Part shown: positions 4,706 through 52,232 of the stretch, piece by piece
Layout of the letters: every line of letters starts with the position of its first letter
How positions within the stretch are numbered: position 1 is the stretch's first letter
Source: a virus
DNA length: 64,000 nucleotides
Direction: 5' to 3' (one strand)
IMG/VR virus record: IMGVR_UViG_3300023179_000062
Span: 1-64,000 of that record
Notes under the pieces: model-generated
Told to the model about the DNA's origin: nothing
The model's database searches: none
The model's input: the letters and a program-made list of their open reading frames with translations, nothing else
Position numbers and translations under genes: made by a program

Positions 4706-5416
4706 ATGGGTTTTTCTAAATTTTTCAACGAGCATTTTATTAAGAAGCCGATAGATTACGATACATGGGATCGTCAATTATTAGATAAGGGATGGGAGCG
4801 GAAGGGTGAGGGATCATTTGGAATTGCTTATGTGCATCCTAATAAGGATTACATTTATAAAATCTTTCGGAATGATCCGGGGTATGATTTCTTTTTAAAG
4901 TTTGCATTACAAAATCAAAAGGACAAGAGTGTTGTTAAGTTGAAGCGGGTTGTTTTGAACAATGCGGCATCTCCTGATGAAAACTATTTGTCGAGTAAGT
5001 CTATTCCGAATGTTATCGTATTGGAGAAGCTTACCCCGTTGCGGGATAAAATCTCAAACTACGATTTGGTGTTTAATGCATCGTTCATAATAATGAAAAG
5101 TTTAGATCAAGTGTACAAAGATGGGATGACATATGAGCAAGCAATTGCGGCTCTCTTGGATTATGCAAAGAAACAATATGCATCGGCATATAAGAATATA
5201 ACTAATCGGAAGGATTATGCATTAAAGGTTTGGCGGCGGATGATTAATTTGCTTCGTTCTCCTATGATGTATAAGTTACCTATTTTCCGTACTATGTATA
5301 ATTTGTTTATATTTAGAAAAGAAAATGGGAGCGAGCGTTATTGGGATTTACACGATGGGAATTTGATGTATCGGGAATCCACCGGGGACATTGTATTAAC
5401 TGATCCGTTTGTTTAA
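4706..5416 (+). CDS. putative packaged protein-kinase-like protein
   Basis: The 236-aa product begins with a targeting-type peptide (MGFSKFFNE). A glycine loop GEGSFG lies at residues 34-39, with a candidate ATP-binding Lys at 52 (YKIF). A catalytic-loop-like DLHDGN lies at 214-219 (Asp214, Asn219), and a metal-binding-loop-like TDPF at 232-235. These are the hallmarks, in order, of the kinase/aminoglycoside-phosphotransferase fold. The chain stops directly after the DPF loop, so the usual C-lobe helices after the activation segment are missing. Substrate is unknown. If packaged and injected, it would act on host proteins at once. Kinase assignment is inferred from motifs. Confidence 0.55.
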   Translation: MGFSKFFNEHFIKKPIDYDTWDRQLLDKGWERKGEGSFGIAYVHPNKDYIYKIFRNDPGYDFFLKFALQNQKDKSVVKLKRVVLNNAASPDENYLSSKSIPNVIVLEKLTPLRDKISNYDLVFNASFIIMKSLDQVYKDGMTYEQAIAALLDYAKKQYASAYKNITNRKDYALKVWRRMINLLRSPMMYKLPIFRTMYNLFIFRKENGSERYWDLHDGNLMYRESTGDIVLTDPFV

Positions 5417-5427
5417 TTAACTATTCT

Positions 5428-5435
5428 TATAAATA
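5428..5435 (+). promoter_or_regulatory. late promoter for the GP88-like gene
   Basis: TATAAATA followed by a 20-nt leader that is mostly a (TA)n run before the ATG at 5456. One of the few late genes here with a real leader. Confidence 0.75.
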
Positions 5436-5455
5436 TTGTATATATATATATATAT

Positions 5456-6649
5456 ATGAGATTTAAAGATTTTTTTCAAGAAATGTTCGTGCCTAATAAA
5501 TTATTATTGGAGGTGGATTGGTCTATGTGGCAAGATGTTAACAAAACTTGCATGAGTGCAGAACAGGTTGCAGAGATGTTGAATACTGAATTAAAAAGAG
5601 GTGAACATAATAGAACTGCAAAATCAAAAGATAATAAAAGTCCTAATAAAAATGATCCAAGATTCACCGCAAATACATTAGAAAGAAGTCGGGGAGAAAA
5701 TGGATTCATTGACGTAGAAAAATTTATTAAGGAAATTAATAAATTGCCTGCTACTATTTTTGATGTGGGGGAGAAATCTTCCCACACTATTACAGCGAAT
5801 ATTGTTACAGTGAATACTGGTATTCCTGCATTTCGTGCAATATTATGGGACGAGGAGCAAAAGGAATTTTTTGTAATCAACACTTGTCCGGCGGCATCAA
5901 AGTGCGCATCTTATTGTTATGCAATGCAAGGATATTACATAATCAATGACGGGAAAAATCTCAAGTTGGTTAATCGGTTACAGTTATTATTAAATGATCC
6001 TGTAGCATATGAGAAGCAAGCATATAGAGAATTGGAATCATATGCATGGCATGCAAAGCGCGACGGAAAAACTTTACAAATACGATGGAATGATGCAGGA
6101 GATTTCTTTAGTGACGTTTACATGGGAATTGCAGTAAAGTTACATAAAAAGTTAATTGCAGAAGGATATAATGTTAAAACCTATGCATATAGTAAACTTC
6201 ATAAAATGATTGAAATTGGAAAGTCTTTTGGATTTTCCATGAATTTTTCTACATCTGCAAGAAAAGCAGACGTTAATGCAATTGATTTTGCCACAACAAA
6301 GATTTCTGATATTATTCCAAAAGAAGTTTTCAAAGAGTTTTTCATCTCTAGTGGTAAAGGTTACAAGAAAGATAAAACAGGCAAAACATTATTCAGGAAT
6401 TCGTCTGATAAAGATGCATTCAAAGCCAAGGTTGTTGCATATTATAATAACCAATTACCTATTAAATTGGAAGAGCATCAAAAACAAATGGAAGGAAAAA
6501 TTAGTTTAAAATCATTAATATTCACGGATGAATTACCTTTAGAAGAAGGAGACACATTTAAATATAATGTAATCGTTTTACCGGGGGGAGATAGTGATAT
6601 TTCTGCCCAACGTACAGACGTACATTATACATTACTGTGCATGCATTAA
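5456..6649 (+). CDS. GP88-like protein with N-terminal targeting peptide
   Basis: The 397-aa product starts MRFKDFFQE, the same motif as the packaged-protein candidates downstream; a second possible cut site follows (LLLE, about residues 17-20). The middle carries NTCPAASKCASYCYA (Cys-x5-Cys-x3-Cys) and later IRWNDAGDFFSDVY. Both resemble the gene-product-88 family of actinobacteriophages, where a Cys cluster precedes a GDFF motif. The Cys cluster could bind metal. Biochemical function of the family is unknown. It converges with the gene ending at 6665, with 15 bp between the stops. Confidence 0.6.
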   Translation: MRFKDFFQEMFVPNKLLLEVDWSMWQDVNKTCMSAEQVAEMLNTELKRGEHNRTAKSKDNKSPNKNDPRFTANTLERSRGENGFIDVEKFIKEINKLPATIFDVGEKSSHTITANIVTVNTGIPAFRAILWDEEQKEFFVINTCPAASKCASYCYAMQGYYIINDGKNLKLVNRLQLLLNDPVAYEKQAYRELESYAWHAKRDGKTLQIRWNDAGDFFSDVYMGIAVKLHKKLIAEGYNVKTYAYSKLHKMIEIGKSFGFSMNFSTSARKADVNAIDFATTKISDIIPKEVFKEFFISSGKGYKKDKTGKTLFRNSSDKDAFKAKVVAYYNNQLPIKLEEHQKQMEGKISLKSLIFTDELPLEEGDTFKYNVIVLPGGDSDISAQRTDVHYTLLCMH

Positions 6650-6664
6650 TTTAGTTAATATTAA

Positions 6665-7462
6665 CTATTCCAATCTATTCCATAGAAGAACCTTATATAA
6701 TTCAGGGTCTTTTTGTTTAATAGTATTCAAATTTAATAATTCCCAATTACCATCATTTATTAAAACTATAAATGTTTTAAGTTTAGTTATTTCATTTGGG
6801 CCTAGAACCGTTTCGGCTCTTTCATATCCTGTTTTATCATTCATTCTATAGGATGGATAATCTCCGGTACCTTGATGGGTATCATAGTCGATACCTTTTC
6901 CGGTTTGTTGGCGATGTTTAATGGCATCACGTTTTTCATTTTCTGCGCCAAAATCCTCATACCATTTTACTGCATTAGGGTATTTAGGATATGCAATGGA
7001 TAAATATCCCGCATAATAATTTCCATAAACTTGATGGAGAATAGTTTGAAATGATCGTCCACGGGTTCCTCCGGTATCGGTTGCTTTAGAAAAGGTAATA
7101 GCATTTTTTGGTTGTTTTGCCCAATAGACGGTATCACCGGGAGATTTGGTATCGGTATCTTTTTGAAAAGGGTTTATTGTTTTATGTCCTCTGAATAAAA
7201 CCGGGGTGGATTCCGTCCCCAACTTCTCAGATAATTCATTTAAGTTTTTTGTATAAAAACCATACTTCCTAAATAAATCTTGTAGGCGAGTTTTTACAGA
7301 AGGTAGATCATGTAATTCCGAAGTATCTTGGGGTTGTTGTAACTCCTTGCTTCTACCTAAGTTATATGTTTTCCCGGTATAGTCTTGTAATTGATGGGCA
7401 TATCGAGGTTTACCCACAAATTGTGCCTCAGTTAATAAATTATACAATTCAGAAAATTTCAT
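6665..7462 (-). CDS. putative packaged ADP-ribosyltransferase-like protein
   Basis: The 265-aa product begins MKFSELYNLLTEAQ, a clear targeting peptide with a predicted cut after Glu12. Downstream are LFRGH (Arg91), AITFSKA (Ser125) and YERAETVLGPNEI (Glu214 and Glu217). Spacing and context recall the R-S-E class of mono-ADP-ribosyltransferases, in which the last Glu precedes a LLPP-like strand. T4 Alt is a precedent for an ART carried in the head. The E-x-E pair is not canonical, so activity is uncertain. It is the last gene of a leftward operon; AGGAG lies 9 nt upstream of its ATG. Confidence 0.45.
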   Translation of the reverse strand: MKFSELYNLLTEAQFVGKPRYAHQLQDYTGKTYNLGRSKELQQPQDTSELHDLPSVKTRLQDLFRKYGFYTKNLNELSEKLGTESTPVLFRGHKTINPFQKDTDTKSPGDTVYWAKQPKNAITFSKATDTGGTRGRSFQTILHQVYGNYYAGYLSIAYPKYPNAVKWYEDFGAENEKRDAIKHRQQTGKGIDYDTHQGTGDYPSYRMNDKTGYERAETVLGPNEITKLKTFIVLINDGNWELLNLNTIKQKDPELYKVLLWNRLE

Positions 7463-7466
7463 AGTG

Positions 7467-10400
7467 TTAATCTCCTGATCTTTTATAGAAGGATGGGGCT
7501 TTACCTAATCCTTTAATAGGGACATCGGTATCTCTCAAGGCTTGATCTTTATTAAGCATTCCTAGTTTTGCTTGAGCAAGTTTTTGACGATCTTCAAAGC
7601 GTTGTTGTTTAAGTTTCAGTGCTTCAGGAGAATGGTCTTTATGTCCCGTCATAAATTCTTCATGGGTATAGCACATAGGGGAATCGGCTTTACTTGAGTC
7701 ATAGTAGCTACTATCCATTTCGTATATATATTCTTCGGGATTTTGTCCCATGAATTTGAGAAGGTCCATGGTTGGTTTCACCAGATTATCTTGCCATCCA
7801 GTCCAATAGCTTATAATTTTGTTATGTGTCCACACACGCACTTCATATGCTCCTCTATCATGTTGTTTTTGTGCAATGTCATCTAGAGCAATATCACTCT
7901 TAATATCATTGATATCATCAGAAGGTTTTAACTCATGATCTTTTATACGACGTAAAGTACCCCGAAGATTTCCGTGTCCGGCTTTTTGTGGCGAAGAATC
8001 TTTTCTAAATACAAAGCTACCGGGAGTTCCATCTGTAAGCATTAATACGGTATAACTCTCTTCATTATTATTATAATGGATAGTTGTCTCTGGATCATTT
8101 CTATCTTTTATGTGGTCGGGGCTTTCGGTAAACATGTTTACGTTTTCTTTGATATCACCGTTTTGCACTAATGTTTTAATTTTAGCCATTAAAGTGTCAA
8201 GTGATTCTTTACCGAATACCTTTACCCATTCTTCCCTTGACAGACCCTTGGGTGTTCCCATAGGGGCTTCTTCTGTTACCCATTCACCGTTTACAAAATA
8301 TGCTAATTTAGTCTTATCAATATTTGCAGCCTCTATTAAATCATTCGTTTTACCGACATAGATAATCCATAACCATTTAGCATTGTCATTGAATTGTATA
8401 CCGGGAACCGCACTAGGATTTGTGAAGGGGCGGATTGCACGGGAAATTGCAAAGTTTTTGGTTAATGTACTTGATGATCCTTCTGTAGTCGTCTTTGTTT
8501 CTTCTTTCTCTTTATCCTCGCCCACATATTCTTTTATCTTCTCCTTTAATTCTGTCAAGGCGGCTTGACCGAACGTATTTGCCCAATCAATTCCTAACAT
8601 ACCCACATATTCCACATAGTCCTCTTCAGGCGTCTCATCAGTCCAGTCACCATTAACGAAATAAAATAATTTATCAATAGGTATCTTTGCTTTTTTAACT
8701 AAATCAGTTTCTATGCCTAAGTAGATAACCTTTAGATTTTTTGTCAAGCCATTGGCTGCAATATTTTTCATATGCATTGAAGAGCCAATGAAGGGACGCT
8801 GCGCACGACGAATGGCAAATGCTATCAATTCATCTTGTTCAGAAGGACTGAGAGTTTTTAGTTGGGGAGCAACAGTAGCAACGGGTGTTATTTGTTCCGG
8901 TTTAACAACAACGGCTGTTTTACCTAATTGAGTGAATGCATAATCTCCGAAGATTGAGCGCCATACGGGACTAGTAATTGCATATGAGGTATTGTGCCAT
9001 CCGATCATATGATCCTCATGATGTTTGATCCATGTAGAGTTCGTTGTATCATATAGAAATAATTTTTCTTCGGGAATCTTTGCCTTCTCGATTAATGGCC
9101 CCATGCCTACAGATATTAATAACCGTGATTGAATATGTGCATCCGTGGCAAGAAATGCTAGATTAGTACCTTTCAATTTACCATTATTGAAAAACGGTAC
9201 ATTTGCAATAGTCAATGCTTGTGTTACCAGATTATCATTTACCTTTGGTTTGGTTGTTCCTGTTAAATCACTTAGATCAGGGTCGGGTAATTTATTAGGT
9301 GTAGAGGTACTGTCGTTCTCTGCCAATACTTTAAAGAAGTCTTTAAAGCGGAATGATTCTCCATTGAGATAACGCTGTTGTACTCCCATAGCAGGTTTTG
9401 GTTTTACTCCCATTTGAATAAGGGCTTCTTTCTTTTCCTCAGGAGGAAGCCCATGAACCACTTTTTGCCAATCACTAGTATTAGTAGACTTTTTATTAAC
9501 TAAATCTTTTCTTTCGGGTTTATTTGTTAATGAAGCTAAACTGACGGGATCGGTGTTATCTAATTCCCATTGATATTCATTAGGATTACCTCCTATTAAT
9601 TTAATCATTTCGATTATTTTTGGTAAGTTATTTTTTACATATACAGACTTGTTCCAAAACGAAATATAATTATGTTCTGTCCAAATTCTACCTTGTATAC
9701 ATTCGGGTAGTTTTCGTAACATGAATTCTCTGTCGGTATCCGGTCCTGCATATGATAAAAGTTTAACAGATGGAGTACCATAAAAGGTTAACAGGGATTT
9801 CCGGTGTTTGTTACCATGAGTAAATGCGTCATCAATATATTCAAATAAACCGGAATGAAATACTTTATTACTATTGGTAAGACATATAAAATCTTGATGA
9901 ACAATAAAGGTTCGGGCATCGGGCATTCGCCATCCTAAACTTTCTTCTTCTATTCCATCAACAGGTTCTGCTAAAGGAAACCATGTCACTGAATGATCTG
10001 GAGATTCCTTAAAGAAGTCCTTGAAACTTTCCCCCATTGCATATCTTGCTTCTACACCTTTTGCGGCTTTCGGCTTTACACCCATTTGAATAAGGGCTTC
10101 TTTCTTTTCCTCAGGAGGAAGCCCATGAACTATATGGGAAGTATCTGCGGCTTTAATAGGTGTTTGAGTTGGAGCAAGTTTGAAGAATTGCGAATATTTC
10201 AAAAAGGTATCTTCATTATCCCTACCATTATAAAAATTATATTTCATCTTTGTAGGGTCTTTACCGTATAATTTAACTACTCGTTCGACAGTCTTTTTGT
10301 CCTCAGAAGAGAATGAATCTGCGGAATTCCAAAAAGATACAATATCATGTTGCATAGATATTCTACCTAAGAACCCATCATCAACTGCATCTAAGAATGT

Positions 10401-10715
10401 GCCGCGTCTAATATCGGCTACTCTTTTATTTTTTAGAAAATTTATAACATTTTCGGGGGCGACTCCTATTTGTCTATAATATGGTTCAGACCTTTTGAGG
10501 TCATCTTCGGTGCTTATTGAGTGAACCATGTCACTGTATTCAAGTTTAAAAATATTTTTCTTTGCTAGACATAGTAATTCCCAATGTGTTGCAACCTGAT
10601 TATCATAAAAATACATGATGAAATTCCCACAAAACCCAAAGGTAAGTGCGCTTTTATCGCCCATATATAAATCATCAGGGTCTTCGGTTAATAAAAAAAA
10701 GTCTTTGAATCTCAT
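7467..10715 (-). CDS. 1082-aa concatenated cargo protein with internal targeting peptides
   Basis: The N-terminus is MRFKDFFLLTE. The same type of peptide recurs at about residues 228-237 (GESFKDFFKE), 454-466 (FRFKDFFKVLAE) and 860-864 (MFTE), each followed by a new unit. Units 1, 2 and 4 are paralogous, with an I-S-[FY]-W motif then a GxNPxEY-like end (near 126-156, 350-381, 968-996). Unit 3 has three copies of a roughly 90-aa module (VGxxxxLIxxAxI ... W...FG). The linker HGLPPEEKKEALIQMGVK occurs twice. Cleavage by the prohead protease at each site would release four proteins. Catalytic function is not recognised. Confidence 0.6.
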   Translation of the reverse strand: MRFKDFFLLTEDPDDLYMGDKSALTFGFCGNFIMYFYDNQVATHWELLCLAKKNIFKLEYSDMVHSISTEDDLKRSEPYYRQIGVAPENVINFLKNKRVADIRRGTFLDAVDDGFLGRISMQHDIVSFWNSADSFSSEDKKTVERVVKLYGKDPTKMKYNFYNGRDNEDTFLKYSQFFKLAPTQTPIKAADTSHIVHGLPPEEKKEALIQMGVKPKAAKGVEARYAMGESFKDFFKESPDHSVTWFPLAEPVDGIEEESLGWRMPDARTFIVHQDFICLTNSNKVFHSGLFEYIDDAFTHGNKHRKSLLTFYGTPSVKLLSYAGPDTDREFMLRKLPECIQGRIWTEHNYISFWNKSVYVKNNLPKIIEMIKLIGGNPNEYQWELDNTDPVSLASLTNKPERKDLVNKKSTNTSDWQKVVHGLPPEEKKEALIQMGVKPKPAMGVQQRYLNGESFRFKDFFKVLAENDSTSTPNKLPDPDLSDLTGTTKPKVNDNLVTQALTIANVPFFNNGKLKGTNLAFLATDAHIQSRLLISVGMGPLIEKAKIPEEKLFLYDTTNSTWIKHHEDHMIGWHNTSYAITSPVWRSIFGDYAFTQLGKTAVVVKPEQITPVATVAPQLKTLSPSEQDELIAFAIRRAQRPFIGSSMHMKNIAANGLTKNLKVIYLGIETDLVKKAKIPIDKLFYFVNGDWTDETPEEDYVEYVGMLGIDWANTFGQAALTELKEKIKEYVGEDKEKEETKTTTEGSSSTLTKNFAISRAIRPFTNPSAVPGIQFNDNAKWLWIIYVGKTNDLIEAANIDKTKLAYFVNGEWVTEEAPMGTPKGLSREEWVKVFGKESLDTLMAKIKTLVQNGDIKENVNMFTESPDHIKDRNDPETTIHYNNNEESYTVLMLTDGTPGSFVFRKDSSPQKAGHGNLRGTLRRIKDHELKPSDDINDIKSDIALDDIAQKQHDRGAYEVRVWTHNKIISYWTGWQDNLVKPTMDLLKFMGQNPEEYIYEMDSSYYDSSKADSPMCYTHEEFMTGHKDHSPEALKLKQQRFEDRQKLAQAKLGMLNKDQALRDTDVPIKGLGKAPSFYKRSGD
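9409..9458. repeat. 50-bp direct repeat, copy 1
   Basis: Identical over 50 bp to 10081-10130. It encodes the HGLPPEEKKEALIQMG linker that precedes the third targeting peptide. Confidence 0.9.
10081..10130. repeat. 50-bp direct repeat, copy 2
   Basis: Identical over 50 bp to 9409-9458, marking a recent in-frame duplication of a cargo unit. Confidence 0.9.
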
Positions 10716-10722
10716 ACGTTAA

Positions 10723-11256
10723 TTATTTATGCTGAACCATGAAACGGTAATTATGAAATTTCTTATTCTTTCCGTGAACTCGTCGCATTTCATCGGAACT
10801 ATGAATGTAACGATTTACTTTAGTTGATATTTCATAGATACTAAAAATAAAAGCATCCTTATATTGTTCATAGAGTTTGATCCAAAACCCCAATCCCGCA
10901 GGAGTCATTGTGGTGTCTGATAGAATATAAGAATATTTCTTCAGAAGATATTCCATATAAATTGCCCGTGCAAGACCTTTATATTTCGGATTTTGTTGAA
11001 TTAAGTTCTCTTCGATACCGGAACGTTTAAGATAAAACCCTACTTCCGCAGCAACCTCCTGATCATTATGAATAAAATATAAATCAGTATCACCGTTGTT
11101 CACTTCCCAAACATCATACTCAATATTATTCAATTTAACCTTTTCAACAAATCGTCCCATCTTTTTTATATGGGGAATCGTTTCCTCCATTTTCAAATCA
11201 ATGTCAACCCGTTGAGGCATCTCTAATAGTAATTTATAGAGAAAATCAAATTTCAT
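10723..11256 (-). CDS. putative packaged GNAT-like acetyltransferase
   Basis: The 177-aa product begins MKFDFLYKLLLEMP (predicted cut after Glu12). The middle has AEVGFYLK, then NPKYKGLARAIYMEYLLKKY, resembling the acetyl-CoA-binding loop and helix of GNAT enzymes. SDTTMTPAGLGFWIKLYEQY follows, resembling the late GNAT motif in which an aromatic residue and a W-x-K-L helix end the fold. The substrate is unknown. No promoter of its own; it follows the lipoprotein gene by 3 nt. Its stop codon overlaps the late promoter of the 1082-aa gene. Confidence 0.45.
   Translation of the reverse strand: MKFDFLYKLLLEMPQRVDIDLKMEETIPHIKKMGRFVEKVKLNNIEYDVWEVNNGDTDLYFIHNDQEVAAEVGFYLKRSGIEENLIQQNPKYKGLARAIYMEYLLKKYSYILSDTTMTPAGLGFWIKLYEQYKDAFIFSIYEISTKVNRYIHSSDEMRRVHGKNKKFHNYRFMVQHK
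10724..10731 (-). promoter_or_regulatory. late promoter for the 1082-aa gene
   Basis: CATAAATA on the minus strand, ending 8 nt before the ATG at 10715. Confidence 0.75.
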
Positions 11257-11259
11257 AAA

Positions 11260-11694
11260 TTATGGAGTAACAGTAGGAAGTCCTTGTGTGATTGCATTCG
11301 AGAGAGCTTGAAGGATAGGAACAAGATTTTCCACCGAAGCAATTTTATTAGTTACCGCAGTATTATAGTATGTCTTATAAAGAACAACTAATGCATTTGC
11401 TACATTTAATGCTTCAGGGGTTTGGAGTTCTTTAATCTTTGAAGATTTGATGGTTGCTGCTAATGTATCAGGTGAAAGGTCTTGACCAAGGGCAAAAGTA
11501 TTAATTACTGTCACCAAATCCTTAAGATATGGGATTGCTTTTGGTTGTTTTTGAACACCGATACTAACAGTAGGAGGAACAGTGACACTTATAATGACGG
11601 GTGCATTGGTTAAAATTGCTTGTGCTGTCGGAGTTTTACATCCAGTAAGAACTAAGCAAGAACCAAGTAATAAAGAGATAATTAAGTTTTTCAT
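11260..11694 (-). CDS. small lipoprotein, 144 aa
   Basis: A type II signal peptide is clear: a basic start, a hydrophobic core (LIISLLLGSCLVL) and the lipobox LTGC with Cys19 as the lipid-modified residue. The mature part has no recognised domain; it is Ala/Thr/Val-rich with two long helices after residue 60. Phage lipoproteins can be outer-membrane spanins or superinfection-exclusion proteins, but no partner inner-membrane spanin is visible next to it. It is first in an operon with the GNAT-like gene. It carries no targeting peptide, unlike its neighbours. Confidence 0.8.
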   Translation of the reverse strand: MKNLIISLLLGSCLVLTGCKTPTAQAILTNAPVIISVTVPPTVSIGVQKQPKAIPYLKDLVTVINTFALGQDLSPDTLAATIKSSKIKELQTPEALNVANALVVLYKTYYNTAVTNKIASVENLVPILQALSNAITQGLPTVTP

Positions 11695-11701
11695 ATAATA
11701 G

Positions 11702-11709
11702 TATTTACT
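11702..11709 (-). promoter_or_regulatory. late promoter for the lipoprotein gene
   Basis: AGTAAATA, 7 nt before the ATG at 11694. It overlaps the stop codon of the upstream gene. Confidence 0.6.
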
Positions 11710-13456
11710 CTTCTTGCATAGCCATCATCAACCCATCAATTTCTTTGAATATCTTGGTTTGTATTTTTTTGATGTTTCTTTTTACATTAAGCAAATTACT
11801 TATTATAGTGTACATGTCGTTCGGATCATCCATTGTAAATGATAATTCAACGTTTAGTACATCCCTTTCCCATGAACATGTCTGATTCTTTCTATTCATA
11901 ACATTATTCAATGTAGGTTCATAAAACATATAAAACAACAAACGTTTCTGGTTGTTGATTTGGTCAATAACCGTATCCAGATTTTCACTAAATTTGTTGG
12001 TATTGTTCCATGCCCGTTGGAAAGGGACTTCAAATGTAGTATTAATTCTTACAAAAATATAAGGATGAGCGTCTCTATTTACAGGTTGTGCATGAACTTT
12101 GAAACGGGGGCGAAGTCTGGATTGGTAAGAATTTAAAATATTGTTAACTTCGTCTTGCCACGAAACAACATGATTAGTCTTGTGTCGTATCGCTTTATAC
12201 TCGTTTTTTCCAAAGAAATTATTTAACAAATATTCAAGTGATTCGTCTGAATAATCTCCACCCACAAGAACTATATTATTTTGTGCATAGTTATATTCAG
12301 GAGGATTTTTGAAAATTGGTTGATGTTGTCGGACATAATCTAAAATATTTTCATAGATGTCAGGAGTGATATATCCATATTTTTGTTCAGATTGCAAAGT
12401 AGTGGGAACCGCAAAATCTTTTCCCGTTTCAATATCAACAAATCTACGTAAACGGATACGCCCTATAGGGGCGATACTGCCCGTATTTCTATCAGAATCA
12501 TGAAATATATCTTTGTCATTTAAGTTATTTCTAACTCTTTTCCCGTCAGAACCTTTTATTAAATACACAATTCCTCCGTCATTTTGGGCATCAGCAATTG
12601 CACACTTGGCATAAGTTCCGTCTTCAGAAGAGTACTTTCCTCCCCCTAGTCTGTGACAGGACGAGATACCTTTATGATCTGCCATGCGCAAAACATCAAT
12701 AGGATGGCGTGAAAATAACAAATAATAAAACATATTATTTTGGTCAATTGTCTGTTTCAATGCTCTTAAATGATTTATAGGTTGTACTTTTTCTTTCTTA
12801 ATATTATCAAGAATAACACGGATGGAATGGTAAACGCCGTTACCTAATGTGTTCAATGAATCATTAAATCCGCCACGGATAAATTCTACTCGAATATGAA
12901 TTATATCGTCTATTAATTTCTTTATAGTTTGTACATCCAATGGTTCATTTAATTTATAATTTTCTCTAGTATATGCATTGGCTTTAAGCGTCATGATCAT
13001 ACTTTTATCATGGGTATATAGTTCGTATGTATCTGCGGTGTTGTCATTTTCGAAATGAGGATGGTACGATGTTAGAAATTCTATTATGCGATCTAGTGGA
13101 TTATCTTTATATGCATGAATTTTATATCTTATAAAATTTTGAATAAGTTTATCTTTTATACCACTGACATCTATACGATTATATGCGTCCATCAATTCAA
13201 TCATCTTTTCTTTAAGGGCCGTGTTGATATTTTTACCATGTAATTGTCTATTAGGAAAATCGAAATCGGATAATGCCCATCCTAAATTTTCTGATGCTTT
13301 TTGAAATTTTGGATTAAATACCTTGACTAAGAAACGTTCCCCATGTCCGTTAAACAGGTCATTAAATGGGCGATCAGATACCTTATCCACCGCATCTTGG
13401 ATTTTATCAACAAAACTTTGCTGAGCTTCTAGAAATAATTTAAAGGAATCCGTCAT
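11705..13456 (-). CDS. packaged-protein candidate, 583 aa
   Basis: It starts MTDSFKLFLEAQ, with a predicted cut after Glu10. Around residues 249-300 is a striking block, SRHPIDVLRMADHKGISSCHRL followed by a KCAIADA segment and VYLI. I recall similar SRHP...SCH blocks in other phage proteins of unknown function. Conserved His, Cys and Arg suggest an enzyme. An RIRLRRFVDIETG segment follows. The C-terminal 200 residues are helical. The start overlaps the upstream 119-aa gene by 4 nt, so both are translated from one message. Confidence 0.5.
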   Translation of the reverse strand: MTDSFKLFLEAQQSFVDKIQDAVDKVSDRPFNDLFNGHGERFLVKVFNPKFQKASENLGWALSDFDFPNRQLHGKNINTALKEKMIELMDAYNRIDVSGIKDKLIQNFIRYKIHAYKDNPLDRIIEFLTSYHPHFENDNTADTYELYTHDKSMIMTLKANAYTRENYKLNEPLDVQTIKKLIDDIIHIRVEFIRGGFNDSLNTLGNGVYHSIRVILDNIKKEKVQPINHLRALKQTIDQNNMFYYLLFSRHPIDVLRMADHKGISSCHRLGGGKYSSEDGTYAKCAIADAQNDGGIVYLIKGSDGKRVRNNLNDKDIFHDSDRNTGSIAPIGRIRLRRFVDIETGKDFAVPTTLQSEQKYGYITPDIYENILDYVRQHQPIFKNPPEYNYAQNNIVLVGGDYSDESLEYLLNNFFGKNEYKAIRHKTNHVVSWQDEVNNILNSYQSRLRPRFKVHAQPVNRDAHPYIFVRINTTFEVPFQRAWNNTNKFSENLDTVIDQINNQKRLLFYMFYEPTLNNVMNRKNQTCSWERDVLNVELSFTMDDPNDMYTIISNLLNVKRNIKKIQTKIFKEIDGLMMAMQEE

Positions 13457-13812
13457 ATATTTTTCTGTATCAATTTTATGAACGATGGGGGAATATCCGC
13501 CCGTGATATAATTTCCAACATTTGTGGATCGGTGACAAGAGGAAAATTATCCGGTAGGGTAACGGATAACAAATGTAACAAATCATCTTCTGCAAAATTT
13601 TCCCGTAACCAGTTATTCACCGCTTCTTTCACATGCGCTAATGATTTAAATAATAAAACTCTAGGTGGTTCATTTGTCTGTTCGGTGTTATTACCTTGTT
13701 GGGCCAATATCCCCTGTTTCAAAATATAAGAAAGATCAGAATCTTTACATACATGATAGAAGGTTTTAGCGGTGGCTTGTTCCTGTAAAAGAAAAAAATC
13801 TTTGAATCTCAT
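13453..13812 (-). CDS. packaged-protein candidate, 119 aa, ART-fold-like
   Basis: It begins MRFKDFFLLQEQA (predicted cut after Glu11). The rest, TFYHVCKDSDLSYILKQGI, then VLLFKS and a VTLPDNFPLVTDP strand, resembles the opening of the RNA 2'-phosphotransferase / ADP-ribosyltransferase superfamily (YHxT...L..IL..GI pattern). The similarity is by eye only, and no catalytic Glu can be placed with confidence. It is first in a two-gene operon. Confidence 0.35.
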   Translation of the reverse strand: MRFKDFFLLQEQATAKTFYHVCKDSDLSYILKQGILAQQGNNTEQTNEPPRVLLFKSLAHVKEAVNNWLRENFAEDDLLHLLSVTLPDNFPLVTDPQMLEIISRADIPPSFIKLIQKNI

Positions 13813-13819
13813 ATAGCTT

Positions 13820-13827
13820 TATTTATA
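13820..13827 (-). promoter_or_regulatory. late promoter for the 119-aa gene
   Basis: TATAAATA, 7 nt before the ATG at 13812. Confidence 0.8.
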
Positions 13828-16800
13828 ATTCCTCTTTTTGTAAGTACTCATATATATCTTTCCACCCTTTTTCGCTTACATAATATTTAATATTAGGATT
13901 GGTTCCTATCATACCGTTGGAATACATTTTGGTGGCAGGTTTATAAGCATATAAATCTTTATGAGAGAACATCGGACATAGGTTTACAAGTTTAGCATGT
14001 ACCGAGCCTTGGGGTGAATCGCTTTTTGCCCCATTTCCTACACAATATAAAGTTACTGGTCCGTATATGGTTTTTGCATCTTTGATGATTTCCGTCATGT
14101 CATCCGCAATATCATAGAACATATCAAACTTTTTCTGTTTTTCATCGGCTTGTTGGCTTTTTATTATCTCCTTAACCTTTGGTACATTTTTCAAAGTTTC
14201 GGAAGGTCCGAACACTGATTCCCATTTAGATAGGAGCATATAATAATCCATTGATTCTGATGATCCATATTGCCCTGCTTCGAAATATGGATTTTGACCG
14301 GGATGGTATGCATGGATATCATAATATCCTGCTTTGTCTCCCTTGACGGATTGTAAAATAGTATATATGTTTGGGTCGCCTCCCTTACCTAACCATACCA
14401 TAGTAGCATTATTATGTGCAGGATCAATTTTGGTAGTTTCTGGCGATGCCCTATTCTTCATTGCCTCAAATAATTGAGGAGATTGATCCTTGTAAAATAT
14501 ATCTGGTGGGGGTTCGTTGAAAATCGCTTCCCATGTATGTGATGTAACATAGTACATATTTTTACTAACATTTCCCTTGGTATGATTTTCCCAATAGTCC
14601 GAAGATTTATAATATAGTTCATTAGATTTGATTCCTAATATATCACTTATATTAGGGCTTTCTTTTCCAAATCCGACAGGCACCATAAAATGGATGCCGT
14701 TCTTTTTCTGAATCTGGTACTCAGGTGTATTTGCAATTTGGCGTATATCAAGACGTTGTTTGTCCAATTTTTCTTTATATATGTTTAGTTCATCGACTAT
14801 CCCTTCGGGTAAAGGTCCGAAAATATGTTCCCAACTTTCTCTAGTTATATATAATTTATATTCTTCATACTCTACATGGCTAGACACTGATCGAGTATTA
14901 CCTTCTGCTGTATAAGTTGGGGTATCCAATATCAAGTCATAAAACACTACATTAGATGATCTACCTACATACATTAGATTTTTAGAACATAATAATGTAT
15001 TGTCAATGTTATCAATGCCTCGATTACGCAATTCATCCATAGATGAATTTTTGTCGAAAATATACTTAGATATTAGTGTATAGAAATATGTGGCATCCCC
15101 AAGTTTATCATTTTCTCGTAAAATTTTTGCTACTCCTAAAAATAATTCCTTCTTATCATTTACTATCCATCCTTGGAAATCTATATGTTTTAAATATAGT
15201 GTCCAATCTGTATCGCTCATATCTATAAATGGCTGTAAAGAACCTAACCGTGCTAAAACAAACTTTATTGCATCATGAACTTTACTTATATGTTGAGGGC
15301 GAGCATATGCTTCTAAACTATTCAAAACATTATATAGATTGTCTCCATCAATTAACAATTTTTTATCTAATTCTGTAGAATTCATTACTGTTCTGATAAA
15401 GGAAGTATTTGCTTGTATGCTCAGTTCCTTTTTAATTCTCTGATATAATTCTTCATGGGATAATGGAATCGCTGTTATCTCATTGGAATGTATTGCATGC
15501 ATAATAATTTCACGCTGTCTTACAGGAGAGATTTTATCCCATATAATATGATTAATGTCATCTATACCACCCCTTAATGCATATAATATATTAGAAGAAC
15601 TATATTTATTAAAGAATGTATCCGTGCTTAATTTTTTAATTACATCTATTGCATGTGGGTCAGTATTTAAAATATTTGCAAGTAGATCATTTTTTGTTTT
15701 ATTGTGAATTGCACTATAGGAATTGAACATGCTGCTATATATTAATTCAGTCCGTTGATTAGGAGATATACTATCCAATAAATTTTTAGAATTGATGAAT
15801 GTATCTGCGTATGATGAGAGTATAGCCTGATAATAGTAAGTGTTCTTTGAAAACTTTTTTAGAATTGCCTGTAGAGTTGACTTGGGCCATGTTTCAAATA
15901 TAGACGGTTGTTTATCTACGCTAGGGTCACAATTAAATAACTGTTGAAGATTATTATAAAAATCCGAAGTAACTTCTTCATCGTCTCCTATTATTGCCCG
16001 TTCAATGTCTTTCCATACTAATTCGGGGACTTTATGTGTTTTAACATATTCAGCAATAATTTGGACAGGGACTGGTTCTGTATTAAAATTACGTGCCAGA
16101 TTAACTACCATGTAATGGTTAGGGGTTTGTGAATCAGACATGGTATCTATCAGGTTCATCAACTTTAATGTGGATTCAATTTTGTCGGTGTAAGAGTTGT
16201 CGCCTCTCCCAAAAATATAACTAAGTTTATAAAAAAAACTTTTATTAAATGTGTTCTGGTTAAAATTTAAACAAAGGTTTAATAATACTATTGCATATTT
16301 TTGTAAACCATCAATAGCCTTCTGTGAGGTTGATTCGTCTATTTCAAATGAGTCAATACGTGATTGTAGATATTTTATAAAATTTTCTGGTACTGGGGGA
16401 TTTGTGCCTATACCATATCTAACTATATTTTTAAGTACAAGAGTAGTCAGAGTGTCTACAGAGAGTGATGCAAATTGATATTCGGGAATTCTATGTAACA
16501 TCTTATACGTTACGATGTTATTAATCACCATAGACACAAAAGCGGATTTCTTTTTAAGCATAGCATCTATAGCTTTAGCAGGGTATTTATCATTCCTAAG
16601 CGCCTCTCTAATATTTTGTTCGAGTTTATTGACAGAATGTTCACCGACCTCACTCCAGTTTTTGTTTTCAATTTTTTCAAGAACCTTGACAAATTTTTTA
16701 CCAAATACTACGCTTTGAGTTGGTTCGTTACTATGGATTGAACCTGATCCCGTATCATCAATAAAAATCGGGCATCCTATCTTTATCATTAGATTGGACC

Positions 16801-17386
16801 AATATGCACAGTGTTTACATTGTGATAGAAATTTTATCGAAGTGGAACCATCTGTTGATCTTTTATGTGTCTCCGTCATGGATATTTGTCTGACTACGGA
16901 CCATAATGTTTTAAATGGGGTCTGTTTATACATACAATCCAGTTGATCCAAAATCTTTTTAATATCTTCTAATGTATATGGAGTAACTTCAGTAATAGCT
17001 TTAATTTTATCCTCTAAATTTTCTTTTGAGAAATCGCTTGATCTGACCGCCTTATAACCATCGGCAGGTTCATATACATAGACCGTCGGGCGTTCTGCGG
17101 CAAATGGTAAAGATTTATGTTTAAAATTAGATTCCCACATGGGGGCAAGCACGTACCCATATATCCCTGTAGGGGTATCATATTGATTTCTTGGATTAAT
17201 CCCTACCCCCGGATCAAAGGTAGCTTTAACTTTTCCCGCGTTGTCATAATGAACAATATTATCTCGAAAAGATACCATCACATCTTTTCTATCTTTATAC
17301 TGTTCTAAAACTTCCACTACTGAACGGCGTGGAGTATCGCCTCGGCGGGCTTCTGAGAAGATGTTAAAAAAGGAACTGAAATTCAT
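13823..17386 (-). CDS. 1187-aa packaged-protein candidate with C-terminal repeats
   Basis: The N-terminus MNFSSFFNIFSEARR is a textbook targeting peptide with predicted cut after Glu12. Residues 30-80 hold a beta-rich unit; about 200-215 hold a Cys-x2-Cys (QCKHCAYW). The long middle (about 240-790) is helical with no recognised domain. The last 390 residues contain four copies of a module that opens with a V-G strand and closes with Y-Y-x-x-S/T...W-E-x-[IV]-F-G (near 848, 950, 1055 and 1167). The same module is found in the neighbouring 1082-aa protein. Function unknown. No internal cut site comparable to the 1082-aa protein was found. Confidence 0.5.
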   Translation of the reverse strand: MNFSSFFNIFSEARRGDTPRRSVVEVLEQYKDRKDVMVSFRDNIVHYDNAGKVKATFDPGVGINPRNQYDTPTGIYGYVLAPMWESNFKHKSLPFAAERPTVYVYEPADGYKAVRSSDFSKENLEDKIKAITEVTPYTLEDIKKILDQLDCMYKQTPFKTLWSVVRQISMTETHKRSTDGSTSIKFLSQCKHCAYWSNLMIKIGCPIFIDDTGSGSIHSNEPTQSVVFGKKFVKVLEKIENKNWSEVGEHSVNKLEQNIREALRNDKYPAKAIDAMLKKKSAFVSMVINNIVTYKMLHRIPEYQFASLSVDTLTTLVLKNIVRYGIGTNPPVPENFIKYLQSRIDSFEIDESTSQKAIDGLQKYAIVLLNLCLNFNQNTFNKSFFYKLSYIFGRGDNSYTDKIESTLKLMNLIDTMSDSQTPNHYMVVNLARNFNTEPVPVQIIAEYVKTHKVPELVWKDIERAIIGDDEEVTSDFYNNLQQLFNCDPSVDKQPSIFETWPKSTLQAILKKFSKNTYYYQAILSSYADTFINSKNLLDSISPNQRTELIYSSMFNSYSAIHNKTKNDLLANILNTDPHAIDVIKKLSTDTFFNKYSSSNILYALRGGIDDINHIIWDKISPVRQREIIMHAIHSNEITAIPLSHEELYQRIKKELSIQANTSFIRTVMNSTELDKKLLIDGDNLYNVLNSLEAYARPQHISKVHDAIKFVLARLGSLQPFIDMSDTDWTLYLKHIDFQGWIVNDKKELFLGVAKILRENDKLGDATYFYTLISKYIFDKNSSMDELRNRGIDNIDNTLLCSKNLMYVGRSSNVVFYDLILDTPTYTAEGNTRSVSSHVEYEEYKLYITRESWEHIFGPLPEGIVDELNIYKEKLDKQRLDIRQIANTPEYQIQKKNGIHFMVPVGFGKESPNISDILGIKSNELYYKSSDYWENHTKGNVSKNMYYVTSHTWEAIFNEPPPDIFYKDQSPQLFEAMKNRASPETTKIDPAHNNATMVWLGKGGDPNIYTILQSVKGDKAGYYDIHAYHPGQNPYFEAGQYGSSESMDYYMLLSKWESVFGPSETLKNVPKVKEIIKSQQADEKQKKFDMFYDIADDMTEIIKDAKTIYGPVTLYCVGNGAKSDSPQGSVHAKLVNLCPMFSHKDLYAYKPATKMYSNGMIGTNPNIKYYVSEKGWKDIYEYLQKEEL

Positions 17387-17391
17387 ATTTT

Positions 17392-17399
17392 TATTTAGA
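17392..17399 (-). promoter_or_regulatory. late promoter for the 1187-aa gene
   Basis: TCTAAATA, 5 nt before the ATG at 17386. Confidence 0.65.
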
Positions 17400-18383
17400 T
17401 TACATTTTAGGGAATAGGTGCTTCATACTGTAAAGTTTTTTCCAATAACTGTTAGTTCCTACAAAATATTTCACCACTTTACCAATACCCGGTAGTACCA
17501 TTATTAATCCACCATCAGAAGTATATCCTTCAAATTGTCCATCACTTATAGTTTGTTTTTCTAACATTTTCTTAAGAATAGCTCTCTCAATCATATTCGG
17601 GGCTTTAAATCCTCTTTTAATTAAAATATTTTTAATATCAAGTGATACCATTCCCCATAGAGGAACATTTGATTCGGATAATTCGAGCAATGCACGATAT
17701 TTGGATTTCATGCTTCCTGCTGTGGCTACAAATTTAACAAATCCACTCTGTTGAGGACGAACAGCCACATACCCTGACTCGTCTCCATAGAAATGCCAGT
17801 TTTGGGCTTTCTGAGTAAATTTATCTTTGGGCCATGCTTTTCCTGTAGAAGCCATATACTCTTTGTAGAAAATATCATATGCCTTATCCAAATCAAGATT
17901 AAGGATTCTCTCTTCTTTTAATAATTTTCGGCTCTCGGTGAGGTTCTTTCTTTGAAGAATTGGCACTAACCGTTCCATTCCGAAATGTAATTTTTCTGGA
18001 AAATCTTTAAGCGAGAACCATCTAACACTGCTCGTCTCTTTATCTAAGCGCGGTTTAAATTCATCAGGAACAATCCCGATAAAATTGTGGAAAGTGAATG
18101 CTCCTTTGCGATATATATCTAAAGTGTATAAAGAAACTTCTCCTGTATACCCTATTTCTTCATGTAATTCTCGGATGGCTGCTTGATTGGCAGTTTCTTT
18201 CCCGTCTATAGCACCACCAAACAAACCCCATGTGTTAGGTTGATCCACATAAGGAGAACGTAATCCTAACAAGAAACGTTGTGTTTTTTTACAAAATATT
18301 AAAACACCTGCTCCGCGTTTACCCCAAAAATTGGTAGGTTCTGTTGATTCAAGTATAAGTTTGGCTAATCTATCGAAAGTCAT
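17400..18383 (-). CDS. packaged Nudix hydrolase with extra C-terminal domain
   Basis: The 327-aa product starts MTFDRLAKLILESTE, with predicted cut after Glu12. A complete Nudix box occupies residues 57-79: Gly57, Glu63, then REL-H-EE-I-G-Y at 71-79, including the metal-binding Glu pair. Such enzymes hydrolyse nucleoside diphosphates linked to another group (NADH, ADP-ribose, capped RNA); the substrate cannot be chosen from sequence. Residues about 150-327 form a second domain of unknown function with a YGDESGYVAVRPQ strand region. Head packaging of a Nudix enzyme next to ART-like proteins suggests control of NAD or ADP-ribose chemistry on entry (inference). Confidence 0.75.
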   Translation of the reverse strand: MTFDRLAKLILESTEPTNFWGKRGAGVLIFCKKTQRFLLGLRSPYVDQPNTWGLFGGAIDGKETANQAAIRELHEEIGYTGEVSLYTLDIYRKGAFTFHNFIGIVPDEFKPRLDKETSSVRWFSLKDFPEKLHFGMERLVPILQRKNLTESRKLLKEERILNLDLDKAYDIFYKEYMASTGKAWPKDKFTQKAQNWHFYGDESGYVAVRPQQSGFVKFVATAGSMKSKYRALLELSESNVPLWGMVSLDIKNILIKRGFKAPNMIERAILKKMLEKQTISDGQFEGYTSDGGLIMVLPGIGKVVKYFVGTNSYWKKLYSMKHLFPKM

Positions 18384-18388
18384 CTAAT

Positions 18389-18396
18389 TATTTATG
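18389..18396 (-). promoter_or_regulatory. late promoter for the Nudix gene
   Basis: CATAAATA, 5 nt before the ATG at 18383. Confidence 0.75.
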
Positions 18397-20242: not shown

Positions 20243-20246
20243 TCAT

Positions 20247-20567: not shown

Positions 20568-20863
20568 AATTTTATAGCTTTCAGTACATCGTTGAAATCG
20601 AGATACATGCGTTTAATGTCAGGATAGTGTAGAATTGTATCCATATTACTATTCACAAAATTTTTATATTCCTTAGCAGATTGAGTAAGTATCTCGCTCA
20701 ATTTGGCGTTTTCTTCTGGACGAACTTCTTGATAATTACCAAGATTTATCTGTTTGTGTAAATTTATAATCTTAGACTGTAACTTCTTAATATCATTCGA
20801 TAGTGTAATTTCTCTATCGGAGAAAGCCTCATTTAATATCCTAACATAATCATTGAAAAACAT
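20564..20863 (-). CDS. packaged-protein candidate, 99 aa
   Basis: It begins MFFNDYVRILNEAFSD (predicted cut after Glu12, followed by Ala, the preferred residue in T4). The remainder is a helical, heptad-like protein (NDIKKLQSKIINLHKQINL) with mixed charge. First gene of a two-gene unit with its own late promoter. No function is recognised beyond likely head packaging. Confidence 0.5.
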   Translation of the reverse strand: MFFNDYVRILNEAFSDREITLSNDIKKLQSKIINLHKQINLGNYQEVRPEENAKLSEILTQSAKEYKNFVNSNMDTILHYPDIKRMYLDFNDVLKAIKL

Positions 20864-44441: not shown

Positions 44442-45122
44442 ATGCAAATCGCTCGTAAATTAATAGTAGAATCACCTAATTATGATCTTGTTTTCGAAAA
44501 AGTACAAGAAAATAGGGATTCTGATAAAAGGTACTTCATTACGGGACAGTATGTAATGATGAATCGCGGTAACAAAAATCGCCGTATTTATGAGGAAGAT
44601 GAAATGGTTCCTGCCGTTGATACCTATATTAAAGAATATGTTCTTGAAAACCGTGGGGGTGGAGAACTTAATCACTCTGACAAGCCAGATGTGGACTTGA
44701 CAAAGTTAGCAGATAAAATCGTTCATCTTGAACGTGATAAACATGACTCAGATTATTATCTTGGGCGTTCTTTAGTACTATCAACCCCATCCGGTAAAAT
44801 CCTTGAATCATTGATTCATGATGGTGTAAAGTTTGGTAAGTCAACTAAATGCTTAGGTCAAATTTCTGAAAGCACTGACGGTTTCAATCGTGTTAAAATG
44901 CCTATTCTCGTCTTAGTTGATAACGTATTTGATCCTTCCGTTTCCACTGCATTCGTAAATGGAATCTGTGAAAATAGAGAATATATCATTGGAAATGATG
45001 GCAAGATTGCCCGTGCATATGAAGCATTAGATGCAAGTCTTTCCAAATATCCTTCCAAGCACTCGGATGAAATCCGTGCCTATATCTTTGAAAACCTTCA
45101 GAAATTCCTTGCAAAAATTTAA
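44442..45122 (+). CDS. gp21: prohead core protease gp21
   Basis: The 226-aa product matches the T4 prohead protease family (peptidase U9, herpes-protease-like fold). It shows NRGNKNRRIYEEDEM, the GGGELNHSDKPDVDL motif with the catalytic His near residue 79, and the VLSTPSGKILESLI region with a likely catalytic Ser. It should cut scaffold, capsid and targeting peptides after [L/I]-x-E during head maturation; its own N-terminus (KLIVE) holds such a site. This is the enzyme predicted to process all tagged proteins in the window. Two small genes follow in the same message. Confidence 0.9.
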   Translation: MQIARKLIVESPNYDLVFEKVQENRDSDKRYFITGQYVMMNRGNKNRRIYEEDEMVPAVDTYIKEYVLENRGGGELNHSDKPDVDLTKLADKIVHLERDKHDSDYYLGRSLVLSTPSGKILESLIHDGVKFGKSTKCLGQISESTDGFNRVKMPILVLVDNVFDPSVSTAFVNGICENREYIIGNDGKIARAYEALDASLSKYPSKHSDEIRAYIFENLQKFLAKI

Positions 45123-50675: not shown

Positions 50676-52232
50676 ATGGTAAATCCATCATCACAATACG
50701 TAGACAGTGCCCCAGCCTTTATCAACAAGGATCGTGGGCGTTCCCTAATCAATAAATGGAGTAAAATACTCGAATTCACTGACAGCCAAACCGCGCCAAT
50801 CGTGGGCTATCAAAAACAATTGGCAACATCAATCATTCTTGAGAACCAAGAAAACTACCTCAAACAACAAGGTTTCCTACGTCCTAACGTGATTCAGGAA
50901 AACGGTATGATCGCAGGTGGAGCATTTGCTTCAACTCCGTTCGGTGGTGGTACCGCTGGTACTGCACCAACCGTTAACGGTCAATACGGTAATGCTTTGG
51001 GTGCTTCCGATTGGTATGCTCCCGGTGATGCACGTCTTCCTAAGACTCTCATTCCTATGATCCGTCGTACTTTCCCTGAGTTAATCACTCATGAAATCGT
51101 CGGTGTTCAGCCAATGAGCGGTCCAGTAGGTCTTGCTTTCGCACTTCGTTATCAATATGACCAATCTGCTCTTGCATGTAGTCCATATGACGACAAGAAT
51201 TGTACATCCCCTAACTCTAAGTGGAATCCTAACGGTCAACCATTTAACACCAACCATTTAGGTTCCGGTGAAGCTGGTTATCAAAAGTTATACACCGCAC
51301 ATACAGGTATCACCGCTGCTGGTCTATCAGGTAATTCTGATTTCTCCATCCCAGCTATTGATTCTGGTGTTGCTCAACTTCTTAGTCACTTTGAAGCAAG
51401 CAGCAATATTCCTACTATGTCTCTTAAGATCGAAAAGACTGCTGTTGAAGCAGGTACTCGTAAGCTTGGAACTAGCTGGTCTATGGAACTTGAACAAGAC
51501 TTGATGAACATGAATGGTATCGACATTGATGCTGAAATGACAAACGCGATGAGCTATGAAATTCAGGCAGAAATCGACCGTGAAATGGTTATCCGTATGA
51601 TCCAAGTTGCCCTCAATGCAGGTCAAGGTACAGGTTATTCCGTCTGGAAGCCACAGCTTGCCGATGCTCGCTGGTTCGGTGAAAGAGGCGTAGACTTCTA
51701 TGCTAAGATCGTTGTGGAAGCTAACAGAATGGCTATTCGTAATCGTCGTGGTCCAGCTAACTTCATCGTTGCTACTCCGAAGGTTTGCACCATTCTTCAG
51801 TTGCTCCCTGAATTCCGTCCGTTTGAAGTAAGTTCCAACATCCAAGTTCACCCAAATGGTGTCGCTCGCGTTGGTTCCCTTGCAGGACAGTTCAACATCT
51901 ATCGTGACACTCGTTCCGAAGCGCAGTATCTTGCAGGTGTTCGTGCAACTTCTATTGAATATGCACTTCTAGGTTACAAAGGTTCTGAATTCTATGACAC
52001 AGGTATCGTGTATTGCCCATACATCCCTGTTCTTGTTCAGAGAACAATTAGCCCTCACACCATGACACCAAATGTCGGTATGATGACTCGTTACGGTGTT
52101 ATTGACTCTCTATGGGGTGCTTCAAACTTCTATCACATCATCATTGTGAAAGATATTGATCGCAATCACTATAGCTCAAGCTTAACTCCAACCTCTGCTG
52201 CAACTCTTCCAGTCTATTCAGTTTCTAACTAA
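50676..52232 (+). CDS. gp23: major capsid protein gp23
   Basis: The 518-aa product matches T4-type gp23 (HK97 fold). It has an N-terminal delta region with the likely gp21 cut at VIQE/N (Glu75), the TLIPMIRRTFPELITHEIVGVQPMSGPVG segment, the SMELEQDLMNMNGIDIDAEM region, and the FIVATPKVCTILQLLPEF stretch. It forms the hexamers of the head. It ends just before a bidirectional terminator. Its codon use is less AT-biased than nearby late genes, as expected for the most abundant protein. Confidence 0.95.
   Translation: MVNPSSQYVDSAPAFINKDRGRSLINKWSKILEFTDSQTAPIVGYQKQLATSIILENQENYLKQQGFLRPNVIQENGMIAGGAFASTPFGGGTAGTAPTVNGQYGNALGASDWYAPGDARLPKTLIPMIRRTFPELITHEIVGVQPMSGPVGLAFALRYQYDQSALACSPYDDKNCTSPNSKWNPNGQPFNTNHLGSGEAGYQKLYTAHTGITAAGLSGNSDFSIPAIDSGVAQLLSHFEASSNIPTMSLKIEKTAVEAGTRKLGTSWSMELEQDLMNMNGIDIDAEMTNAMSYEIQAEIDREMVIRMIQVALNAGQGTGYSVWKPQLADARWFGERGVDFYAKIVVEANRMAIRNRRGPANFIVATPKVCTILQLLPEFRPFEVSSNIQVHPNGVARVGSLAGQFNIYRDTRSEAQYLAGVRATSIEYALLGYKGSEFYDTGIVYCPYIPVLVQRTISPHTMTPNVGMMTRYGVIDSLWGASNFYHIIIVKDIDRNHYSSSLTPTSAATLPVYSVSN

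What the first reader, a model, noticed from the sequence alone, without database searches (positions are those of the whole stretch)
7467..10715. Concatenated polyprotein of four cargo units, each with its own targeting peptide
The 1082-aa protein has an N-terminal tag and three more internal tag-like sites (near residues 228-237, 454-466, 860-864), each starting a new unit; units 1, 2 and 4 are paralogs. A head protease cutting at each tag would yield several separate proteins from one packaged chain. I know of no described polyprotein of this type in T4-like internal proteins.
Basis: partly seen in the sequence, partly recalled or inferred. Interest (0 to 1): 0.9.

Follow-up and report, generated by a model that had tools for sequence, protein, structure and literature searches.

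The report
Phage head cargo polyprotein with tags
An uncultured T4-like phage appears to string four cargo proteins into one long chain, with a head-entry tag or cutting site in front of each; in related phages the same kinds of cargo are made by separate genes that start with such a tag, so the chain is probably loaded into the phage head and cut into separate proteins there, although the cutting itself has not been shown.

Summary
The 1082-aa ORF is real (minus strand, 10715..7467) and nearly identical (97%) in a second contig. A tag profile trained only on stand-alone N-termini of these phages picks exactly residues 3, 231 and 457 as the three best places in the protein; in a 35%-identical relative (658 aa) the three best are again the N-terminus and the two internal junctions. 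The site near 860 is not a full tag, only a cleavage-type site (FTE|SPDH). Comparison across records is the strongest evidence. Three kinds of downstream unit exist elsewhere as separate genes with a tag at their own N-terminus: unit 4 (G005), unit 2 of L009 (four records), unit 2 of L007 (G004, G005, a 595-kb phage). In the L009 and L007 cases the internal Met aligns with the start Met of the stand-alone gene. The phage has a gp23-type capsid protein and a gp21-type head protease. Internal initiation looks unlikely. Tags are also cargo-exchange joints: related sequences diverge exactly there. Cleavage, virion location and cargo function are inferred, not shown. Best reading: a capsid-targeted polyprotein cut by the prohead protease, a new variant of the T4 internal-protein/CTS system.

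The parts
7467..10715 (-). 1082-aa ORF of the cargo polyprotein, 123 kDa
   Evidence: intact and 97% identical in L002
10683..10715 (-). tag 1, aa 1-11, MRFKDFFLLTE|D
   Evidence: same class as tags on about 20 other ORFs of this phage
10176..10682 (-). unit 1 globular domain, aa 12-180 (GRxx...IISFWN family)
   Evidence: AF2 domain confident at about aa 20-178, tag and linker low; alignments A4, A7
10038..10148 (-). linker 1, aa 190-226 (HIVHGLPPEEKKEALIQMGVKPK...RYA)
   Evidence: conserved in L003, L007, L009 and G005
10005..10037 (-). tag 2, aa 227-237, MGESFKDFFKE|S
   Evidence: second-best tag score of the protein; conserved in L003, L007, L009
9501..10004 (-). unit 2 domain, aa 238-405, paralog of unit 1
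9366..9467 (-). linker 2, aa 417-450, repeat of linker 1
9318..9365 (-). tag 3, aa 451-466, NGESFRFKDFFKVLAE|N (no Met)
   Evidence: third-best tag score; divergence between G000 and L002 starts inside it
8166..9317 (-). unit 3, aa 467-850, about three diverged W..xFG-type repeats
   Evidence: hhalign E 3e-5, probability 72%
8124..8153 (-). junction 4, aa 855-864, IKENVNMFTE|S: cleavage-type site without full targeting tag
   Evidence: no tag score; stand-alone homolog in G005 reads MKFEELYKIYTLLE|SPN
7470..8123 (-). unit 4, aa 865-1082, paralog of units 1 and 2
44442..45122 (+). gp21-type head maturation protease, the presumed cutting enzyme; its own N-terminus reads LIVE|SP
   Evidence: phrog_207 E 3e-35
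50676..52232 (+). gp23-type major capsid protein with an IQE|N / LQE|A type site near the end of the propeptide region
   Evidence: PF07068 E 7e-88
11705..13456 (-). stand-alone tagged gene (583 aa, MTDSFKLFLE|A) whose homolog is unit 2 of the L009 polyprotein

Best explanation
The protein is a capsid-cargo polyprotein of a deeply diverged T4-like phage. Its N-terminal tag, helped by two internal tags of the same kind, draws the whole chain into the prohead core. The gp21-type prohead protease then cuts after the Glu at the end of each tag (E11, E237, E466) and at the tag-less site E864, giving about 26, 26.5, 44 and 25 kDa proteins that stay in the head with the DNA and are injected at infection. 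Shown by sequence: the architecture, the statistical reality of tags 1-3, their conservation, their homology to N-terminal tags of separate genes, and the presence of the protease. Inferred: packaging, cutting, injection, and that the units act as separate effectors.
For: The tag scan puts the top three hits of the protein exactly at three unit starts, and likewise in L003; the N-terminal motif occurs in 30/142 ORFs against 2.3% of internal 20-mers. The internal Met of L009 (MGESFKTYFE|A) aligns with the start Met of a stand-alone gene in other records (MTDSFKLFLE|A, MGEFKLFFE|A, MGAFKLFFE|A). Unit 2 of L007 (MEESFKDHFLQLISE|KNYSY) matches stand-alone MLSSTFDIFSKVILE|KNYSY and MLDSHVDAFYKILLE|KNYSY from the Met on, and a 595-kb phage has this family as stand-alone genes, one starting MLESFIGWIKNINE. 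Unit 4 has a separate tagged homolog (MKFEELYKIYTLLE|SPN, E 8e-21). The phage has a gp21-type protease, gp23 and a T4-type terminase. Glu at P1 with a hydrophobic or aromatic P3 is present at every internal junction followed by cargo in the four polyproteins of this family. In L002 only P2 of tag 3 changed (LAE to LTE). Unit 1 models as a confident domain between a low-confidence tag and linker. T4 precedent: a 10-aa CTS, with residues 4 and 7 for targeting and 8 and 10 for processing, carries foreign fusions into heads and is cut; Alt is also cut at its C-terminus by gp21 (PMC9026906).
Against: No proteomic data exist for this phage group. P3 is Phe at E237 and E864, whereas T4 sites have Leu/Ile (own knowledge), though Phe at P3 also occurs in stand-alone tags here (FLE|A, FSE|A). 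Junction 4 lacks targeting residues. L007 ends in a tag with no cargo behind it, and homologs of window 59203-60168 keep a C-terminal GDSF motif, one without a Glu (L036), so an internal tag could serve as a C-terminal tag of the preceding unit. The G005 unit-1-type gene has a decayed junction (MGESSKRS) before its GNAT domain. The full-length structure model is too poor (pLDDT 42) to show that the junctions are exposed.
Confidence: 0.68

Rival explanations
1. Uncut multi-domain internal protein: extra tags add binding strength to the scaffold core, only the N-terminal tag is removed, and the units act as one multidomain protein.
For: All evidence for tags is also evidence for scaffold binding; linkers are conserved; a cargo-less C-terminal tag exists in L007 and a C-terminal GDSF motif in homologs of window 59203-60168.
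Against: P1 Glu is present at all internal junctions with cargo, including junction 4, which has lost the targeting residues but has FTE|SPDH, the opposite of what avidity alone would preserve. Homologous units occur as single proteins elsewhere.
Confidence: 0.2
2. Fusion scars: in-frame gene fusions left old N-terminal tags that no longer do anything.
For: Fusion looks like the derived state for the L007 and L009 units; the junction in the G005 unit-1-type gene is decayed (MGESSKRS).
Against: MGESFKDxF is 8/9 identical between P0001 and L003 although the proteins are only 31-35% identical, with synonymous codon differences; the tag reads FKDFF in tags 1-3 of P0001 but FKDH[FY] in the L003 tags and the first two L007 tags, as if tracking a shared partner.
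Confidence: 0.08
3. Internal translation starts at the tag Met codons make the units as separate proteins, each with an N-terminal tag.
For: Five of seven GES/EES-type internal tags have Met just before the tag.
Against: Sequence before these Mets scores in the bottom 0-4% of real starts of this phage; P0001 tag 3 and the L007 terminal tag have no Met.
Confidence: 0.03

Closest known systems
T4 internal proteins IPI/IPII/IPIII and their capsid targeting sequence (CTS), cut by gp21
   Same: Short N-terminal tag with spaced aromatic residues and a hydrophobic-x-Glu end; a gp21/gp23-type head in the same genome; cargo diverse, tag conserved; foreign fusions to a CTS are packaged and cut in T4 (PMC9026906; PMC3012670).
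   Different: T4 IPs are small single-unit proteins with one tag (own knowledge: basic); here three tags and four units lie in one acidic chain (pI 6.05), with no match to any PHROG family.
T4 Alt (packaged ADP-ribosyltransferase)
   Same: Large packaged enzyme cut by gp21 at both ends (PMC9026906), so more than one cut per chain is precedented.
   Different: Alt cuts remove end peptides; they do not separate cargo units.
Polyvalent proteins of phages and conjugative elements (PMC5512222)
   Same: Several effector-like domains in one chain, some likely carried in the capsid; likened there to polyproteins of RNA viruses.
   Different: Release there is attributed to embedded peptidase domains; no peptidase domain was found here, and the tag at each unit start points to cutting in trans by the head protease.
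SPN3US/phiKZ-type ejection protein processing (PMC10052503)
   Same: Head protease processes packaged ejection proteins, sometimes at several sites per chain, after A-x-E.
   Different: The several cuts described there fall within long propeptides that are removed; no chain divided into several tagged cargo proteins was found in the passages read.

Membership tests
T4-type CTS-bearing internal head proteins | N-terminal CTS with spaced aromatic/hydrophobic residues ending in hydrophobic-x-Glu | tested here: met
   MRFKDFFLLTE|D; best-scoring place of the protein
T4-type CTS-bearing internal head proteins | Genome encodes a gp21-type protease and gp23-type capsid protein | tested here: met
T4-type CTS-bearing internal head proteins | Protein packaged in the head and cut at the CTS | not testable with these tools
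   uncultured phage; needs virion proteomics
T4-type CTS-bearing internal head proteins | Small, basic, single-unit protein | tested here: not met
   123 kDa, pI 6.05, four units; hence described as working like them, not filed as an IP
T4-type CTS-bearing internal head proteins | Cargo sequence homology to T4 IPs or another known packaged family | tested here: not met
   no PHROG or Pfam family at significance, no phage tblastn match, no PDB or viral fold match
Protease-processed polyprotein (functional class) | Several independently occurring proteins joined in one frame with a protease site at each joint | tested here: met
   stand-alone tagged homologs of three unit types; hydrophobic-x-Glu at each joint; no full stand-alone homolog was found for P0001 unit 3 or L003 unit 3
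Protease-processed polyprotein (functional class) | Cutting at the joints demonstrated | not testable with these tools
   needs N-terminomics or co-expression
Polyvalent proteins (Iyer et al. 2017) | Known effector/enzymatic domains in one chain, often with an embedded peptidase | tested here: not met
   no recognised domain or peptidase in P0001

The most novel reading that the evidence does not exclude
A natural cargo polyprotein in the T4-like lineage: one targeting event delivers a fixed ratio of several effectors into the prohead, the head protease separates them, and the tag doubles as a recombination joint through which cargo units are swapped, fused and lost among related phages.
Probability: 0.6. 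Interest if true: 0.86.

Novelty: new variant of a known kind. Interest (0 to 1): 0.74.

Why it matters
If right, phage head proteases not only trim head and cargo proteins but also release several cargo proteins from one chain, giving fixed-ratio co-packaging by one delivery step. It gives a sequence rule (internal CTS-like tag plus hydrophobic-x-Glu) for finding other packaged effectors in uncultured phages, and it shows tags acting as joints for cargo exchange. It is directly testable by in vitro cutting even without the host.

Tried and rejected
Sequencing or assembly artefact: rejected, the ORF is intact in a second contig (L002, 97%) and three further diverged records have their own tagged fusions. 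Internal translation starts: disfavoured. Known-domain annotation of the units by PHROGs, Pfam, PDB sequence and folds: nothing significant. Relatives in annotated phage records: none by tblastn for P0001, the 583-aa protein or L003 unit 3; a linker-plus-tag query gave only chance hits. Relatives in genome contigs: none. Full-length structure: pLDDT 42, uninformative. Alignment A4 was too diverged for a collection scan. The fourth site as a full tag: rejected. Papers combining capsid targeting, prohead protease and polyprotein: no described T4-like tagged cargo polyprotein in the library searched, which lacks most subscription journals.

Full report
WHAT IS THERE. The ORF is complete at 7467-10715 but on the minus strand. 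The window is part of an 85,486-base virus record. The record has a gp23-type capsid protein (PF07068, E 7e-88), a T4-type terminase and a gp21-type head maturation protease (phrog_207, E 3e-35). The capsid protein is only about 31% identical to the nearest cultured phages listed (cyanophages), so this is a distant T4-like lineage. P0001 has no match in PHROGs, Pfam or 50,697 phage records.

ARE THE TAGS REAL. Many proteins of this phage start with a short peptide of the form M-x-F-x-x-F/Y...hydrophobic-x-E. A strict form occurs in the first 20 residues of 30 of 142 ORFs of the loci studied, against 2.3% of internal 20-mers. A profile was trained on 22 such N-termini, excluding the polyproteins. 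The three best places in P0001 are aa 3 (FKDFFLLTE|D), aa 231 (FKDFFKE|S) and aa 457 (FKDFFKVLAE|N). The three best in the 658-aa homolog of L003 are again aa 3, 235 and 455. Other isolated high scores occur in the proteomes, so the score alone is not proof; the coincidence with unit starts is the point. The fourth site, aa 860-864, is not a full tag.

ANATOMY. Tag 1 - unit 1 - linker - tag 2 - unit 2 - linker - tag 3 - unit 3 - FTE|S site - unit 4. Units 1, 2 and 4 are one family. Unit 1 is predicted as a compact domain, with the tag (aa 1-11) and the stretch after about 180 at low confidence (mean pLDDT 78.6); its fold matches nothing known. Unit 3 holds about three repeats distantly like a W..xFG repeat of the large tagged proteins of L016 and L017.

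THE COMPARATIVE TEST. (i) L009 has an 834-aa chain of unit 1 plus a 599-aa unit whose homologs are stand-alone genes in G000, G001, G002 (frame broken) and G006; its internal MGESFKTYFE|A lies on their start (MTDSFKLFLE|A, MGEFKLFFE|A, MGAFKLFFE|A). (ii) L007 has a 1061-aa chain whose second unit (MEESFKDHFLQLISE|KNYSY) matches stand-alone genes of G004 and G005 from the Met on (MLSSTFDIFSKVILE|KNYSY, MLDSHVDAFYKILLE|KNYSY); a 595-kb phage also has the family as stand-alone genes, one starting MLESFIGWIKNINE, so fusion looks derived. (iii) Unit 4 has a stand-alone, fully tagged homolog in G005, next to a unit-1-type gene that carries the linker, a decayed tag and a GNAT domain. (iv) A second, unrelated protein shows the same design: window 59203-60168 ends just after IGDSFDSYYNTVIE, whereas its 68%-identical counterpart in G005 continues from IGDSFTNFVNTVLTE|S into about 110 aa of further protein.

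TAGS AS JOINTS. L003 and L007 DNA is more than 90% identical up to the middle of tag 2 and then unrelated; L007 has lost the L003 third unit, leaving a cargo-less terminal tag; the next gene keeps its tag MKFLELYNLL while its cargo differs. Between the window phage and L002 there are 2 nucleotide differences in the first 1392 bases, then dense differences beginning at codon 465, inside tag 3. Cargo of one type also occurs with different tags (L007:5459 and L016:14169).

MECHANISM. T4 work (PMC9026906) shows that a 10-residue CTS targets fusions into the prohead, with residues 4 and 7 important for targeting and 8 and 10 for processing, and that gp21 can cut a packaged protein at both ends (Alt). 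By analogy the chain enters once and is cut after each tag Glu. Supporting cutting rather than only binding: the Glu with hydrophobic or aromatic P3 is present at each cargo-bearing joint, and junction 4 has FTE|SPDH although it lacks the aromatic positions; the protease's own N-terminus reads LIVE|SP and the capsid protein has an IQE|N / LQE|A site. Cutting, packaging and injection are not shown. Internal starts are disfavoured because sequence before the internal Mets scores in the bottom 0-4% of real starts and tag 3 has no Met.

LIMITS. Relatives are few (four polyprotein architectures of this family, eight records in the main comparison), some of low quality (L007 has a broken 583-aa homolog). 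Parts of the tag alignment rest on short sequences. An internal tag could also be read as the C-terminal tag of the unit before it; the cut would fall at the same place. Function of the units is unknown; other tagged genes nearby include a NUDIX protein and a kinase-like protein, which fits injected effectors but does not prove it.

Noticed in passing
window 4706-20863 and elsewhere: About 20 ORFs of the record carry N-terminal tags of this class, many in one block; they include a NUDIX protein (17400-18383), a T7 gp0.7-like kinase match (4706-5416) and a GP88-family protein (5456-6649): an apparent island of packaged cargo.
   Followed up: partly
window 59203-60168; L017:5983-7113; L034-L038: Second protein family with an N-terminal tag and a conserved C-terminal IGDSF tag-like end; in G005 a further cargo of about 110 aa follows it. 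L036 lacks the Glu.
   Followed up: partly
window 13453-13812 and 6665-7462, with homologs in L003/L007/L009: Tagged small proteins that by eye resemble ADP-ribosyltransferase-like folds (FYHVCKD..., VLFRGHK...); no library match.
   Followed up: no
window 45618-46019; L017:13313-13705: Tag fused to a short C-terminal domain (CWKGYKKVGMKKKGKR.VPNC) found in many phage families of unknown function (phrog_727 E 5e-51).
   Followed up: no
window, upstream of most genes: No Shine-Dalgarno sequence; strongly A-rich -12 to -8 and T at -1 before ATG, with TATAAATA-like stretches, pointing to an unusual host type or late-promoter overlap.
   Followed up: partly
window 55421-58540: Tail sheath protein is unusually long (1039 aa), with the sheath match mainly in the last 210 residues.
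   Followed up: no
window 13823-17386: 1187-aa tagged protein whose C-terminal third holds the W..xFG repeats shared with the L007, L016 and L017 cargo.
   Followed up: partly
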